This document shows positions 55,904-63,600 of a stretch of DNA of 64,000 nucleotides, one piece after another; position 1 is the first letter of the stretch; every line of letters begins with the position of its first letter. The translations under genes were made by a program, and so were the position numbers. Under the pieces are notes generated by a model, which was not told the DNA's origin, did no database searches, and saw only the letters and a list, made by a program, of their open reading frames with translations. This DNA is from Leifsonia sp. 1010 (GTDB lineage: Bacteria > Actinomycetota > Actinomycetes > Actinomycetales > Microbacteriaceae), in assembly GCF_031455295.1 (NCBI RefSeq), contig NZ_JAVDSL010000001.1, positions 1,984,001-2,048,000 on the forward strand, read 5' to 3'.

Positions 55904-55977
<74 letters not shown>

Positions 55978-56025
55978 CGCAGTGGGCCGTTTACGAAACT
56001 GTTTACGGAACCGAGCTCAAAACGA

Positions 56026-56806: not shown

Positions 56807-57118
56807 TTGGCCGGCATCGGCTCAGGTGTCCGTCCGCTGAGCATCAATATGCTGCCGTTCACCTTGCAGACTGACCTTCAGCGTGTCAACGAATGGACAA
56901 ACGTAAAGTACGTGCTCCTCCAACCAACGTTCCGCGTTGGAGAGGCTGAGCATGGTGACAAAACCCTCGTGACGGCCGACGCCGCAGGGACTGTTAGCTT
57001 GCTGGATGCGCTACTGGTCGAGGCGGTCCCAGGGCCGCCGTATGTTCGGGTGTTAGGCACCCGTGAAGTCGTCCGATCCGGCCGGCCAGGCGTTATGGAT
57101 CAGGGGCTGGATCGTTAG
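56807..57118 (+). CDS. possible hypothetical protein (weak)
   Basis: A frame open from before 56774 ends at 57118 and reads NMLPFTLQTDLQRVNEW and TLVTADAAGTVSLLDALLV, a composition typical of real protein. The only usable start inside is TTG 56807. It may be a 5'-truncated gene left after rearrangement between the transposase remnant and the Shedu gene. No family recognised. Confidence 0.3.
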   Translation: MAGIGSGVRPLSINMLPFTLQTDLQRVNEWTNVKYVLLQPTFRVGEAEHGDKTLVTADAAGTVSLLDALLVEAVPGPPYVRVLGTREVVRSGRPGVMDQGLDR

Positions 57119-58560
57119 GTTGGGCGCGAGTTCCGCTGCTTGTCGCTGACCGCATCGGCAGGGCTCGTGTCCGGCGCATCCTGGGCGTCACCATTCTCTC
57201 CGTTTCGTACGAGGTCGCGAAGCTGAATGAGCTTGGCCAGCACCTCGTCGTACGTGACGACGGTGACGACCATCGAGTTTCCCCGAAACATCTCGAAGGA
57301 CTTCTTCTCTGCTTCTCCCTCCGGAGTCGTGCCGGCGATCAGAAATGCCTTCACCGCGAACGTTTCGATTGCCAGTTCCCTATTGTCGGAGCGAATCGAG
57401 TCGATCTTCGTTTGCAGTCGATATCGCTGATCAAGTACCTGAACGATCGACGAGGTGAGTTCGGCGCTCGGGCCGTGTACCTCTCCTCGATATTGTCGCT
57501 GTTGGACCATGGCAGTTCGTGGCTTCTTGATCTCGACGAGAGCGACGTTGTTCGTGAGCGGGTTCTTCGCCAGAAAGTCGGCGACTTTCGTGCCGCCACC
57601 GTCCAGCCTGGTTCCCCCTACTGAAGCCTGGTCTTGGACAATTGTGACTGGGTAGCCGAGCGCCATGTGAAGCGCGAACGGATTCTCAACGAAGAACTTT
57701 TGCCAGAACGGCTCCGATTTCCCTTCATCCAATGCTGCAGAGAAGCTTTGGATGAGCGAGTCAAGGGTGAGCATCTCGAGGTCACTTCGGAGCTTTCCAA
57801 GGCGGTCCGGGCGCTCGGTGGCGATCCGTGCACTTTCCGACATCGCCGCTTCGACCAGCGCGTCGATCGCCGACTCGTCCAAAACAGCTCCTCCAGCTGC
57901 TTCGTCGACGAATTGCTGCACGTGCGGGTGTCGACCGCGTTTGATCGGTACCTGGTCATCTCCCGTGAACTCGGCAATCGCGTTATGCACCCACGCTTCA
58001 CGGACTCGAAGGCTCGCCGAGTTAGCTCGCGCCTTGATTCGGTCGATCTCTGACCGGATACGTTCAAAGTCGTCCGGACTGATCCGAAAGTTGAAACCGT
58101 CCAACTTGGTTTCAACGTCGAAGATCAGCGTTTTGGCATCGGAGACCTTCTCGATGGTCGAGATGATCATTTTGTAGTCCTTCGGAAGACCGAGCCCGAA
58201 CTGGTAGTGGCGACTCAATCCGCGCGGCAACTCATCGAAAACACTGGCGAGGTCTGCGTCGCTAGAGAACTCCGAAAGCGAGTACTTGTCGGCACGGAAA
58301 GGCACGACAATTGTTCGTATCTTGTCGTACTTCGGCGCGAGAAAAAGTCCTTCCGACGCGAAGGTGTTCAAGGGCGTGATGGTGAGCGTGGCGGCGTTGA
58401 AATCGAGCACCGCAATCGTGTGGCGGCTACCTGGTTCGAGTTTCGCTCTTTCCAACGCTGACTTCAGTGGTCGAAGTGAGAACGTGACCGTTCTCGCCGG
58501 CTCGTCCACTAGCACATCGAGTTGCCCGGCGTCCTCATTCACATAACCGAAATCAGCCAT
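57115..58560 (-). CDS. sduA: Shedu-type anti-phage nuclease (DUF4263)
   Basis: A 481-aa protein with the C-terminal DUF4263 PD-(D/E)xK nuclease of Shedu, a single-gene anti-phage system. The catalytic set is visible: Asp328 in VADFLAKN, then Glu343-x-Lys345 in VEIKKP, with an FFVENP segment upstream. The N-terminal half (1-270) is a variable sensor region. ATG 58560 has GAGGGGGT upstream. The C-terminal ~40 residues are disordered. A large palindrome (58601-58647) lies 40 bp upstream of the start. Confidence 0.8.
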   Translation of the reverse strand: MADFGYVNEDAGQLDVLVDEPARTVTFSLRPLKSALERAKLEPGSRHTIAVLDFNAATLTITPLNTFASEGLFLAPKYDKIRTIVVPFRADKYSLSEFSSDADLASVFDELPRGLSRHYQFGLGLPKDYKMIISTIEKVSDAKTLIFDVETKLDGFNFRISPDDFERIRSEIDRIKARANSASLRVREAWVHNAIAEFTGDDQVPIKRGRHPHVQQFVDEAAGGAVLDESAIDALVEAAMSESARIATERPDRLGKLRSDLEMLTLDSLIQSFSAALDEGKSEPFWQKFFVENPFALHMALGYPVTIVQDQASVGGTRLDGGGTKVADFLAKNPLTNNVALVEIKKPRTAMVQQRQYRGEVHGPSAELTSSIVQVLDQRYRLQTKIDSIRSDNRELAIETFAVKAFLIAGTTPEGEAEKKSFEMFRGNSMVVTVVTYDEVLAKLIQLRDLVRNGENGDAQDAPDTSPADAVSDKQRNSRPT

Positions 58561-60647: not shown

Positions 60648-61766
60648 CTAGACGTAGCGATTCACTGGGTCATATCGACCGTCGACGATCTCAATCCGGT
60701 CAATTGTGAAATCCCAATCGCTCAGGTCCGGAGCGTCGGCCGAAATGTACGCAATCGCCTCAACATCTTGTTCTTCCTCTAGGTCTGAATCCACCGTTTC
60801 GCTTCGGTAATCCCACCGTACATACTCGATGGCGACGTCAAGCCGAATCTTGGCTGTAGCAGTAGCCGAACGCTCTTTGAGGGAGATCTCCACGTTATCT
60901 ACGCTGTCGACAGCACTCACGCGAACCACCGAAAACTCGGGCACATGCGTGAGATCACGACGAGGATTGAACAAGAGGTTCTCGCCCGACAACGCGTAGG
61001 CGCGCAATGCTCCGCCATCCTGGTCAACGTAGGTGAGTGCACTCTCAACGCTTTCTTTGAGAGCCTCGGCCGCCACATCCGAGCCCTTCCTCAGCTTGAT
61101 GAGCTCGTTTCGAACGCTCCATAGGTCCCGCAGGATGATTGGCGAAGGTCCGTGTCTGAAGTGGGTACGAGCGTCCTGGTCGCCGGAGGCGAGAACCACA
61201 CGATGCAGTTGGTCGCCTGCGGCATGCGCGACGAGTCGAAAAGACGCACTGTCGGCGGCTCCTGTCTTCACTCGGGCACCAGACTGCGGCTTGGTTCGCC
61301 CCGGTCCCGTACGCAACACCTGGTCACGTAAGCCTAGAACCGCGGCATCGGGATGCTCACTGAGTTCAAGGATCCGAATCGCTGGCGAGTCATCATCCAG
61401 GTAAATGTCCTGTAGTCCATCACTGAGCGTTTCCATAACGTCGTCGACGCTCTGTTCGAACGACGGCGCCACATCGAACCCAGAGATTCCAGCGTCTTCC
61501 AGCTCCCTCTGCCTCGAACGAAACTCATCTCTTGTTCGGACAGCCAAATCGTAAGCGTGATCGGCCCACTCCCATAAGACTGGTTCCGGGACCCAAACCT
61601 CGATTTGCAGTTCCTGCGCACTAATGGTCGCGGCAAGATCCTCAATCTGGCGGAAGCTGATCCGGCCACTAGCAGCGGCATTCGTGTCGATCGCAATCGC
61701 TATAACGTCGTCGGGCAGCTTGTGCGTCGCATCTGCCGCCGTGGTCGCCTCGCGTCCTCTAGACAT
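60648..61766 (-). CDS. PIN-domain protein (DUF4935-like)
   Basis: A 372-aa protein with an N-terminal PIN-like domain: Asp27 in AIDTN, a conserved Glu in EPVLWEW, then Asp in ADSASF and in SGDQD, the four acidic positions of PIN ribonucleases. This pattern is close to DUF4935. The C-terminal ~130 residues (EISLKERSATATAKIRLDV) form a separate beta-rich domain. ATG 61766 has AGGAG five bases upstream. Divergent from the RNase H-like/kinase operon across 191 bp. RNA cleavage is likely but not shown. Confidence 0.7.
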   Translation of the reverse strand: MSRGREATTAADATHKLPDDVIAIAIDTNAAASGRISFRQIEDLAATISAQELQIEVWVPEPVLWEWADHAYDLAVRTRDEFRSRQRELEDAGISGFDVAPSFEQSVDDVMETLSDGLQDIYLDDDSPAIRILELSEHPDAAVLGLRDQVLRTGPGRTKPQSGARVKTGAADSASFRLVAHAAGDQLHRVVLASGDQDARTHFRHGPSPIILRDLWSVRNELIKLRKGSDVAAEALKESVESALTYVDQDGGALRAYALSGENLLFNPRRDLTHVPEFSVVRVSAVDSVDNVEISLKERSATATAKIRLDVAIEYVRWDYRSETVDSDLEEEQDVEAIAYISADAPDLSDWDFTIDRIEIVDGRYDPVNRYV

Positions 61767-61957
61767 GCTTCTCCTCACCCGCCGGCGACGAGTCTATGGC
61801 TGGGCTAGGTGGGGAACGATAGCGGACACGGCATGAACGCTATTGGTAGCCCAGTCTGATCATCGCCTCAGATCCGGCGCCTGTTATCGACCTGCGTCGC
61901 CGGGCCCCAGTAATATTCAAGTTACGGAGGCGTCGACTGCTGGGTGAGGGGGACGAT

Positions 61958-62410
61958 TTGAGAATCGTCGGCATCAAGAATGCTAAGGACTCCATCGGTT
62001 GGGTGATCGTCGAAGGGGGTAGTCGTGCTGAAGCGATTGTGCTTGCCCAGTCCGAGGCCAGCGCACCAATCGGCGACAGGGCCGGACAACTAGCCTGGGT
62101 CCGGCGCGAGGTGTTAGAGATCCTTGCGCGGCACCCGGTCGAACGAGCCGCGATCCGCCTAGCGGAGGCGGGACAATCGGGGGTGCCGAACTTCGCACGC
62201 GCCGAGTTGGACGGTGTTGTGCAGGCCGCCCTTGGCGAAGTCGGCATACCCACTCGCGGATTCAAGAGCGCGACGGTCAGAGGCGCTTACGGTCGGTCAA
62301 AGGCCGACGCGGAAGCTGCTCAGGCTCGAGTGGCCTGCATTAGCAAGACCGCTAAGGTGCGCAGGGACCAACTGGTGGTAGCCCTAGCGCTCTTGCCAGA
62401 GACGCTGTGA
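61958..62410 (+). CDS. RNase H-like fold protein (RuvC/DUF3010-like)
   Basis: A 150-aa protein with an RNase H-like pattern: first strand MRIVGIKNAKDSIGWVIV, middle strand ERAAIRLAEAG and a C-terminal RRDQLVVALALL. In RuvC the first strand ends in a catalytic Asp; here it is Lys (VGIK), so it may be inactive or use other acids, as in DUF3010 proteins. It starts with TTG after GAGGGGGAC. Its stop overlaps the kinase GTG (GTGA), so the two are coupled. Confidence 0.55.
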   Translation: MRIVGIKNAKDSIGWVIVEGGSRAEAIVLAQSEASAPIGDRAGQLAWVRREVLEILARHPVERAAIRLAEAGQSGVPNFARAELDGVVQAALGEVGIPTRGFKSATVRGAYGRSKADAEAAQARVACISKTAKVRRDQLVVALALLPETL

Positions 62411-63468
62411 GCTACCGCCCTATTCGCGTCCTCGGTGCCGGACACTTCGGGACGGTAAGACTGGAGTACGACGAAGCTCTAGGGCGATACTGCGCTGCAA
62501 AGTACCTGAACCCGCAGTACCTACCTCCCAGCGTCGCTATCCATGCGGAGGCGCAAGCGATGATCGCGGCCAAACACGAGAATGTCGTCGAGGTCTATTC
62601 GGCGGATGAGGTTGCCCAGACGATAGCAGGAGGGCACACCGTCACATTTCCGGTGATCCGAATGGAATACCTGGAGCGTGGGAGCATTGAGGACATTAAC
62701 CACGGCGCGATGCTGGGAATAGGTAACGCACTTCGGGCTATCGAGGATGCTTGCCGAGGCGTCGAGCATCTTCATTCGCGTGGTCTACTACACCGCGACA
62801 TAAAGCCTGGAAATCTAATGATGGACTCGGCCGGCCGAGTGAAGGTGAGTGATTTCGGCCTCTCGAGCAAGCAAGGCGCGGCCACAGCGATGCCGCCGTG
62901 GAGCTACACCGTGCATGTACCTCCAGAAAGCGTCAATACGGGAAACGGTATTGAGTCCGCTCTCGGAGACGTCTACGCATTGGGTGTCACGGCGTATCGG
63001 CTGCTCAATGGAGACGAAGGGTTTCGCAACTCATTGCTTCAGGGTGAAGCGCTGAAGGCAGCGATTATCGATGGCACGTTTCCTGACCGAAACGGATGGG
63101 CGCCGCACATCCATTTGAGTCTCCGGAAAGCGGTCATTAAGGCAATGAGCCCCATCCCATCGTCACGATTTCAGTCAGCTGTGGATTTCCGTCATGCGCT
63201 CGAACGCGCCCGCCCGCGAGTTGATTGGGTGCCCGGCCCGGACGGCGCTGGAATCGTCTGTAACGGAGTGGACGTCCTTTCCAACAACGAGTGGTCAGCC
63301 AGGATCAGCGAAGTTTCGCCCGCTGAGTGGTCGTTCGCTTTAAAGAAGAGGGTCCCTGGTGGTGATTGGCGAAGAGTCAACCGAGAAGGTGTAGGACCGG
63401 TCCCCCTGGCGGCGGTGCGGGCTCATGCCGCCGGTGTCCTGGGACGCATAGCTGTAGAAGGCAGGTGA
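62407..63468 (+). CDS. Hanks-type Ser/Thr protein kinase
   Basis: A 353-aa soluble kinase, with no membrane segment. All catalytic parts are present: Gly loop GAGHFG (10-15), Lys32 in CAAKYL, HRDIKPGN with Asp131, and DFG at 149-151. After residue ~270 a 80-residue C-terminal domain of unknown type follows (VLSNNEWSARISEVSPAEW). GTG 62407 overlaps the preceding stop. The gene ends in another GTGA that begins a 39-codon ORF. Confidence 0.85.
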   Translation: MSYRPIRVLGAGHFGTVRLEYDEALGRYCAAKYLNPQYLPPSVAIHAEAQAMIAAKHENVVEVYSADEVAQTIAGGHTVTFPVIRMEYLERGSIEDINHGAMLGIGNALRAIEDACRGVEHLHSRGLLHRDIKPGNLMMDSAGRVKVSDFGLSSKQGAATAMPPWSYTVHVPPESVNTGNGIESALGDVYALGVTAYRLLNGDEGFRNSLLQGEALKAAIIDGTFPDRNGWAPHIHLSLRKAVIKAMSPIPSSRFQSAVDFRHALERARPRVDWVPGPDGAGIVCNGVDVLSNNEWSARISEVSPAEWSFALKKRVPGGDWRRVNREGVGPVPLAAVRAHAAGVLGRIAVEGR

Positions 63469-63584
63469 CGGTGTCCTTCTCCCAGACGATGGGTCCAGTG
63501 AAAATCAGAGGAAAAACGGTCATCCTTCGGAGGAAAGTGCTACCGGGCCCAAGTCGTGATGATTCATACCGCGGGGTTCTGTGA
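63465..63584 (+). CDS. 39-aa basic micro-ORF coupled to the kinase gene
   Basis: GTG 63465 overlaps the kinase stop (GTGA), the same junction type as the kinase start. The 39-aa product is basic (VKIRGKTVILRRKVLPG). It ends 17 bp before the island terminator at 63601. Its tight coupling argues that it belongs to the operon, but it is short and may be fortuitous. Confidence 0.4.
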   Translation: MTVSFSQTMGPVKIRGKTVILRRKVLPGPSRDDSYRGVL

Positions 63585-63600
63585 ACGGCCCACGCAGTGA

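What the first reader, a model, noticed from the sequence alone, without database searches (positions are those of the whole stretch)
60648..63584. Candidate new defence system: PIN protein, RNase H-like protein, Ser/Thr kinase and micro-ORF
A PIN-type protein is divergent from an operon of an RNase H-like protein with an altered active site, a cytoplasmic kinase with an extra C-terminal domain, and a 39-aa basic ORF, all joined by GTGA overlaps. Kinases, PIN and RNase H-like proteins occur in anti-phage systems, and the next gene cluster holds Shedu. I know of no named system with this set.
Basis: inference. Interest (0 to 1): 0.75.

Follow-up and report, generated by a model that had tools for sequence, protein, structure and literature searches.

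The report
RuvC-like protein with defence kinase
Two neighbouring genes, a nuclease-fold protein whose cutting residues appear lost and a protein kinase, form a pair found in very different bacteria and phages that is related to a prophage kinase reported to block other phages; it is a distant, little-noticed relative of a known kind of phage defence, and the other two genes in the finding do not seem to belong to it.

Summary
The genes are there, but the four-gene system is not. The conserved unit is two genes: RuvC-like protein (61958-62410 +) and Ser/Thr kinase (62407-63468 +). I assembled 13 loci with the pair, from Actinomycetota, Alpha- and Gammaproteobacteria, a lambdoid phage and a Bacillus SPbeta-type phage; order is the same in all, gap -8 to +32 bases. 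The lambdoid member lies between cI and stk of phi24B, annotated as similar to 933W; papers report 933W Stk as activated by HK97 infection and excluding it (passages). Partnered kinases separate from 8 control kinases, whose loci lack the partner; partner and kinase distances correlate at 0.96. RuvC catalytic Asp7 is Lys/Arg in 11 of 13 rows and Glu66 Lys/Arg in 12 of 13: probably a pseudonuclease. PIN and micro-ORF have no relative in 13 other fetched loci. The pair sits on a low-GC island beside tRNA-Pro with Shedu; elsewhere beside a dCTP-deaminase defence gene or inside type I restriction operons. Best reading: an abortive-infection kinase gated by a dead RuvC-fold sensor. The pair is well supported; the tie to Stk rests mainly on the partner; the mechanism is inferred.

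The parts
61958..62410 (+). RuvC-like (RNase H-fold) protein, 150 aa, predicted pseudonuclease and kinase partner; upstream gene of the conserved pair
   Evidence: PHROG 3875 4.7e-5; family profile hits PDB RuvC 2.6e-8; AF2 pLDDT 92.4; Asp7 to Lys7 and Glu66 to Arg67; same order and spacing in 13 loci
62407..63468 (+). Cytoplasmic Ser/Thr(Tyr) protein kinase, 353 aa, with about 80-residue C-terminal extension; distant relative of prophage Stk
   Evidence: Pkinase 5.1e-31; catalytic motifs intact, 27% identity to phi24B Stk, groups with the partnered kinases; PHROG kinase family hit is not specific
62407..62410 (+). GTGA overlap of RuvC-like stop and kinase start (translational coupling likely)
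   Evidence: sequence; gaps -8 to +32 in 13 loci
63465..63584 (+). 39-aa basic ORF after the kinase; not shown to be a gene, at most a positional analogue of the 54-55 aa ORF of enterobacterial modules
60648..61778 (-). Probable PIN-like protein, divergent neighbour; not part of the module
57115..58560 (-). Shedu SduA nuclease on the same island (context)
   Evidence: Pfam SduA_C 1.3e-20; PADLOC SduA 1e-131
55904..55978 (+). tRNA-Pro(ggg) at the left edge of the low-GC island (context)

Best explanation
The pair is a chromosomal, actinobacterial version of the RuvC-like + kinase module that lambdoid prophages carry next to cI (kinase Stk). The kinase is the effector: kept quiet in healthy cells and switched on by an infecting phage or mobile element, it phosphorylates cell proteins and stops the infection at the cost of the cell (abortive infection). 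The RuvC-like protein is a catalytically dead RuvC-fold partner that binds a nucleic-acid structure or a phage recombination/replication factor and holds or releases the kinase. Shown here: the pair, its order, its spread, the correlated divergence, the changed catalytic positions, intact kinase motifs, and defence or mobile-element surroundings of several loci. Taken from papers: activation by HK97 infection and phage exclusion for the 933W relative. Inferred: that the actinobacterial pair defends, that the partner is the sensor/gate, what it binds, and which proteins are phosphorylated.
For: Same order and spacing in the 13 loci assembled. Of the loci found by the RuvC-like protein itself, all 5 actinobacterial ones have the kinase next door; three proteobacterial kinases found by kinase similarity alone each had a RuvC-like gene directly upstream. 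Actinobacterial vs other RuvC-like profiles: 98.6% probability over 142 columns. P0002 hits PHROG 3875, which the E. coli, Providencia and SPbetaL7 partners also hit. Partnered kinases form one side of a 100/99 branch and distances correlate 0.963, Mantel p 0.0002. 0 of 8 control kinase loci have the partner. Stk of 933W reported as activated by HK97 and excluding it (passages); stk expressed from pRM in lysogeny (passage). Defence or mobile-element neighbours.
Against: No phage assay is known to me for any actinobacterial member; kinase identity to phi24B Stk is only 27%. The phage kinase family PHROG 2361 is not specific: two control kinases score higher (218 and 248 bits) than the window kinase (151 bits). 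The tree has only 8 controls, all weaker hits, and is unrooted; the Methylocystis/Novosphingobium kinases lie nearest the controls. The distance correlation includes near copies and would also follow from plain vertical descent of both genes. The proteobacterial/phage RuvC-like group alone compares to genuine RuvC at only 88.7% over 95 columns; the G621 and Novosphingobium partners hit no PHROG and 5 of 5 non-window partners scanned hit no RuvC in Pfam. No contact between partner and kinase was tested. Residual acidic residues leave another nuclease activity possible. PMC3430580 calls the impact of stk on the lysogen unidentified (passage). Background frequency of defence genes near island genes was not measured.
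Confidence: 0.55

Rival explanations
1. The RuvC-like protein is an active nuclease effector, and the kinase only regulates it by phosphorylation.
For: RuvC fold; an acidic residue near RuvC Asp141 in 12 of 13 rows and a new conserved Glu70 in 12 of 13.
Against: Two catalytic carboxylates are replaced in 13 of 13 rows: Asp7 (basic in 11) and Glu66 (basic in 12). Reported 933W exclusion is attributed to the kinase (passages).
Confidence: 0.15
2. Toxin-antitoxin-like pair: the kinase is toxic and the RuvC-like protein is a plain inhibitor; the pair is kept by addiction on mobile elements, with defence secondary.
For: Upstream small gene, downstream enzyme, overlapping or abutting frames, island/plasmid/phage homes.
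Against: 933W Stk is reported as an exclusion kinase with little activity in uninfected cells (passages). Differs from the gated-kinase reading mainly in purpose.
Confidence: 0.2
3. The four genes PIN, RuvC-like, kinase and micro-ORF form one new defence system, as first proposed.
For: Adjacency in this window and GTGA overlaps. One other pair (G107) lies beside a VapC-type PIN gene, which the PIN family profile of the window protein does not match.
Against: PIN and micro-ORF not found in 13 other fetched loci with the RuvC-like gene; two PIN relatives without the pair.
Confidence: 0.04
4. A host signalling kinase with a DNA-repair partner, unrelated to phage.
For: RuvC fold suggests recombination intermediates; PHROG 3875 is labelled Holliday junction resolvase.
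Against: Sporadic presence (1 of 28 genomes of the genus), mobile-element and defence neighbourhoods, intact housekeeping RuvC elsewhere in the same genome (G000:C3).
Confidence: 0.06

Closest known systems
Stk of lambdoid Stx-type prophages 933W / phi24B (exclusion of HK97 reported for 933W)
   Same: Cytoplasmic eukaryotic-like kinase of about 350 aa with intact Lys, catalytic Asp and DFG, encoded directly after a RuvC-like frame of about 150 aa
   Different: 27% kinase and 20% RuvC-like identity; HRD in the actinobacterial rows vs HFD in the phage group; here on a chromosomal tRNA island, not after cI; trigger unknown
PHROG 3875 'RuvC-like Holliday junction resolvase'
   Same: P0002 matches over residues 1-97 at 4.7e-5
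   Different: Label implies resolvase activity; two catalytic acids are replaced in all 13 rows. G621 and Novosphingobium partners do not match it
Housekeeping RuvC
   Same: Fold and collinear alignment
   Different: Asp7 and Glu66 replaced; not with ruvA/ruvB; the genome has its own RuvC on contig C3
Other defence kinases: PD-T4-6, MAD6, BREX PglW (PADLOC/NCBIfam); staphylococcal Stk2 (recalled name; its paper title seen in a reference list)
   Same: Kinase-domain similarity (mad6 3.5e-39, PD-T4-6 3.3e-35)
   Different: Far below the curated NCBIfam cut-off for MAD6 (89 vs 460 bits); different companions

Membership tests
RuvC-like + Stk prophage module | Kinase of the Stk group | tested here: inconclusive
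   For: partnered kinases, phi24B Stk included, on one side of a 100/99 branch against 8 controls. Against: PHROG 2361 is hit better by two control kinases than by the window kinase; tree unrooted
RuvC-like + Stk prophage module | RuvC-like gene directly upstream, same strand | tested here: met
RuvC-like + Stk prophage module | Location after cI, expression from pRM | tested here: not met
   Island with Shedu beside tRNA-Pro; 5 neighbouring ORFs scanned, no repressor family found. This is the phage setting only; the other actinobacterial, Methylocystis, Novosphingobium and Mesorhizobium loci show no cI gene that I recognised directly beside the pair
RuvC-like + Stk prophage module | Phage exclusion / abortive infection | not testable with these tools
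   Reported for 933W only (passages)
RuvC resolvase (active enzyme) | Catalytic acids Asp7, Glu66, Asp138, Asp141 (recalled) | tested here: not met
   Asp7 to Lys, Glu66 to Arg in the window; position 141 acidic; Asp138 equivalent not clearly alignable
RuvC fold superfamily | RNase H-type fold, collinear with RuvC | tested here: met
   no fold search was possible
PADLOC-DB 2.0.0 named kinase systems | Companion genes and curated score | tested here: not met
   kinase-domain similarity only; RuvC-like and PIN without PADLOC hits
PIN superfamily (60648-61778) | Recognised PIN profile with acidic residues | tested here: inconclusive
   3 of 18 rows hit PIN_12, best 0.00092; own protein no PIN hit

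The most novel reading that the evidence does not exclude
A RuvC resolvase fold has been turned into a dead, positively charged sensor of DNA structures or phage recombination factors that licenses a eukaryotic-like suicide kinase, giving one ancient immune module shared by actinobacterial islands, type I restriction operons, Bacillus phages and lambdoid prophages, of which only the lambdoid kinase half had been noticed.
Probability: 0.33. Interest if true: 0.8.

Novelty: new variant of a known kind. Interest (0 to 1): 0.62.

Why it matters
It links an orphan actinobacterial gene pair to a prophage exclusion kinase reported from one phage group, and shows that this type of kinase travels with a conserved RuvC-fold partner whose catalytic positions mostly carry basic residues instead of acids. 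That gives a testable answer to how such kinases may sense infection, and suggests that the present label of the partner family ('Holliday junction resolvase', PHROG 3875) is misleading. A version of the pair is present in 223 of 5426 complete E. coli genomes, so the partner is common, not exotic.

Tried and rejected
Four-gene system: rejected on co-occurrence. Plain RuvC: rejected on catalytic positions and on the separate housekeeping copy. Membership in PADLOC kinase systems: only generic kinase similarity. Protein-database search with the kinase C-terminal part found only the window's own protein, so that region stays unexplained. P0002 in plasmids and phages and alignment A1 in viral contigs gave nothing, nor did the G621 RuvC-like protein in plasmids; the link came from searching with the whole kinase. 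tRNA-end repeats at the island edges: none found with exact 13-mers. A same-genus relative (G758, 1 of 27 others) shares the right flank from window 63695 on but has no tRNA in its 20 kb, so it is not a clean empty site. Two weak matches of P0002 in G142 and G241 have no RuvC-like or kinase hit in their short loci. An unannotated kinase hit (H5) and most of the lower kinase hits were not examined. Contexts of four database relatives (P0006-P0009) were not seen. Paper searches for a RuvC-like/kinase/defence link gave nothing on this pair (library limits apply).
Full report
WHAT IS THERE. The four ORFs exist at the stated coordinates. RuvC-like and kinase overlap by GTGA at 62407-62410, kinase and a 39-aa ORF by GTGA at 63465-63468; the probable PIN gene is divergent, about 180 bases away. 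The kinase has all catalytic motifs. The 150-aa protein is weakly RuvC in Pfam (0.026, below cut-off), matches PHROG 3875 'RuvC-like Holliday junction resolvase' at 4.7e-5, folds confidently (pLDDT 92.4, pTM 0.86), and its 12-row family profile finds RuvC crystal structures at up to 2.6e-8. No fold search could be run, so the fold rests on the profile and on the order of strands and helices.

WHICH GENES BELONG TOGETHER. Among actinobacterial genomes the RuvC-like gene was found in G107 and G319 (8 of 396 genomes matched, of which the own genome, G107 and G319 carry it; three more are ordinary RuvC, and two are weak matches without support), in Arthrobacter sp. ISL-5, and in G621 (3 of 398 matched; own, G621, and G454, an ordinary RuvC). 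Further scans gave no new pair: 1 of 13 (G107 again), 2 of 396 (own, and RuvC of a RuvABC operon), 7 of 28 in the genus (own; the other six, and a second match in the own genome, are ordinary RuvC), 1 of 235 (G319 again). In some searches only the best 9 or 16 candidates per genome were scored, so these are lower bounds. In each of the five actinobacterial loci a kinase of the same type follows directly. The PIN protein and the 39-aa ORF had no relative in the other four, nor, with the PIN family profile, in any of 13 other fetched loci with the RuvC-like gene. Two PIN relatives in 249 family genomes have no pair in the 20 kb fetched around them.

BEYOND ACTINOBACTERIA. Searching plasmids with the whole kinase (377 records matched, 12 listed) put Methylocystis parvus (two records), Novosphingobium resinovorum and Providencia alcalifaciens on top. 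All three have a 152-155 aa gene directly upstream. It aligns with the actinobacterial RuvC-like proteins; profile comparison of the two groups gives 98.6% over 142 columns, while against genuine RuvC the actinobacterial group gives 96.7% and the other group 88.7% over 95 columns. Searching with the Providencia partner found 5 plasmid records (itself, one E. coli, two Klebsiella variicola, one Mesorhizobium) and 14 of 50,697 phage records, 12 enterobacterial and 2 Bacillus SPbeta-type, of which I opened two. In the phi24B immunity-region record the match lies, unannotated, between cI and the gene annotated stk. SPbetaL7 has the partner followed by a kinase. A 1502-base E. coli pair is in 223 of 5426 complete E. 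coli genomes, 221 with at least 80% cover, all on chromosomes. In the 13 loci assembled because both genes were seen, the kinase starts between -8 and +32 bases of the RuvC-like stop. The E. coli, Klebsiella and phi24B rows are near copies, so the independent number is about 11. A second Klebsiella plasmid (L044) has the RuvC-like gene and a kinase in several frame pieces; it is not among the 13.

SHARED HISTORY AND CONTROLS. In a tree of 21 kinases the 13 partnered ones form one side of a 100/99 branch against 8 controls. The tree is unrooted, the Methylocystis and Novosphingobium kinases lie nearest the controls, and G319 is a long branch. Pairwise distances of partner and kinase correlate at 0.963 (Mantel p 0.0002, 5000 permutations); near copies and common descent contribute to this. 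None of the 8 control loci, which I picked from the kinase hit lists (H6, H12, H24, H26, H29, H30, H38, H58), has a RuvC-like ORF of 60 aa or more at E up to 10. The controls are weaker hits by construction. A result against an easy reading: the phage kinase family PHROG 2361 is matched by the window kinase (151 bits) but better by two control kinases (218 and 248 bits), so it does not mark the Stk group. The tie to Stk therefore rests on the partner, the gene order and the tree.

ACTIVE SITE. In the alignment with genuine RuvC, including the genome's own copy on contig C3, RuvC Asp7 corresponds to Lys7 and Glu66 to Arg67 of the window protein; the PDB alignment places both the same way (residue numbers of RuvC recalled). 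Over 13 rows the Asp7 position is R or K in 11 (S in G621, L in G319) and the Glu66 position is R or K in 12 (V in G319). A glutamate three residues later (E70) is present in 12 of 13, and an acid near RuvC Asp141 in 12 of 13; alignment near the C-terminus is uncertain for Methylocystis and Novosphingobium. Loss of two metal-binding acids to mostly basic residues, kept across phyla, argues for a non-cutting role with selection on the new residues. This is inference from alignment.

SURROUNDINGS. The window pair lies in a stretch of 59-63% GC from about 56 kb, against 67-74% before, starting at tRNA-Pro 55904-55978 and holding SduA. A same-genus genome shares the sequence from 63695 on. G621: next gene is a dCTP-deaminase defence protein (PADLOC 3.4e-135), about 3 kb from tRNA-Arg. 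Methylocystis and Novosphingobium: inside type I restriction operons between hsdS and hsdR. Mesorhizobium: DUF4433 and macro-domain genes just upstream, which I recall as the DarT/DarG arrangement. phi24B, E. coli plasmid, Providencia: lambdoid immunity or replication region. G107: beside a VapC-type PIN gene and, by eye, an FtsK-like transfer-type gene. Arthrobacter, G319 and Klebsiella variicola show no defence neighbour that I recognised. No background rate was computed.

KNOWN BIOLOGY. [quoted passage not shown] A passage in PMC3430580 says stk is expressed from pRM only in stable lysogeny, and calls its impact on the lysogen unidentified. The primary paper (Friedman et al. 2011) was seen only as a reference entry. 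That an HK97 protein triggers Stk is recalled. I found no paper in the held library that joins the RuvC-like gene to Stk.

MECHANISM. Most likely: an abortive-infection kinase gated by a dead RuvC-fold sensor. The sensor step, its ligand and the substrates are inferred. A toxin-antitoxin reading remains open, since partner as inhibitor and partner as sensor can be the same thing. The micro-ORF question is not fully closed: related 54-55 aa basic ORFs follow the kinase in the enterobacterial modules, and other small ORFs (60-61 aa) in SPbetaL7 and Mesorhizobium, so the window's 39-aa ORF could be a third small component without detectable similarity.

Noticed in passing
window 57115-58560 (-): Shedu SduA on the same low-GC island, about 3.4 kb from the RuvC-like gene.
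   Followed up: partly
L038:5489-7026 and L039:5489-7029: RuvC-like/kinase pair embedded between hsdS and hsdR of type I restriction operons that also carry a SprT-type metalloprotease gene, in two alphaproteobacteria.
   Followed up: partly
L014:10771-12246 (-): Anti-phage dCTP deaminase-type protein convergent with the pair in G621.
   Followed up: partly
L042:6334-6498, L040:7026-7187, L047 after 2985: Related 54-55 aa basic ORF directly after the kinase in enterobacterial modules; possible third component.
   Followed up: partly
L044:8001-9400: Klebsiella variicola plasmid with the RuvC-like gene, no annotated kinase, kinase-like pieces in several frames, then IS genes.
   Followed up: partly
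window 60648-61778 (-): Family of probable PIN proteins (18 rows with the own one; Actinomycetota where a name was shown), no Pfam model of its own, invariant acidic residues.
   Followed up: partly
window 55979-55999 and 63581-63599: By eye, a 13-base stretch after tRNA-Pro recurs inverted (12 of 13) near the right end of the island; could be an end repeat or chance.
   Followed up: no
L045:6218-7938: DUF4433 and macro-domain genes (DarTG-like, recalled) directly upstream of the Mesorhizobium pair.
   Followed up: no
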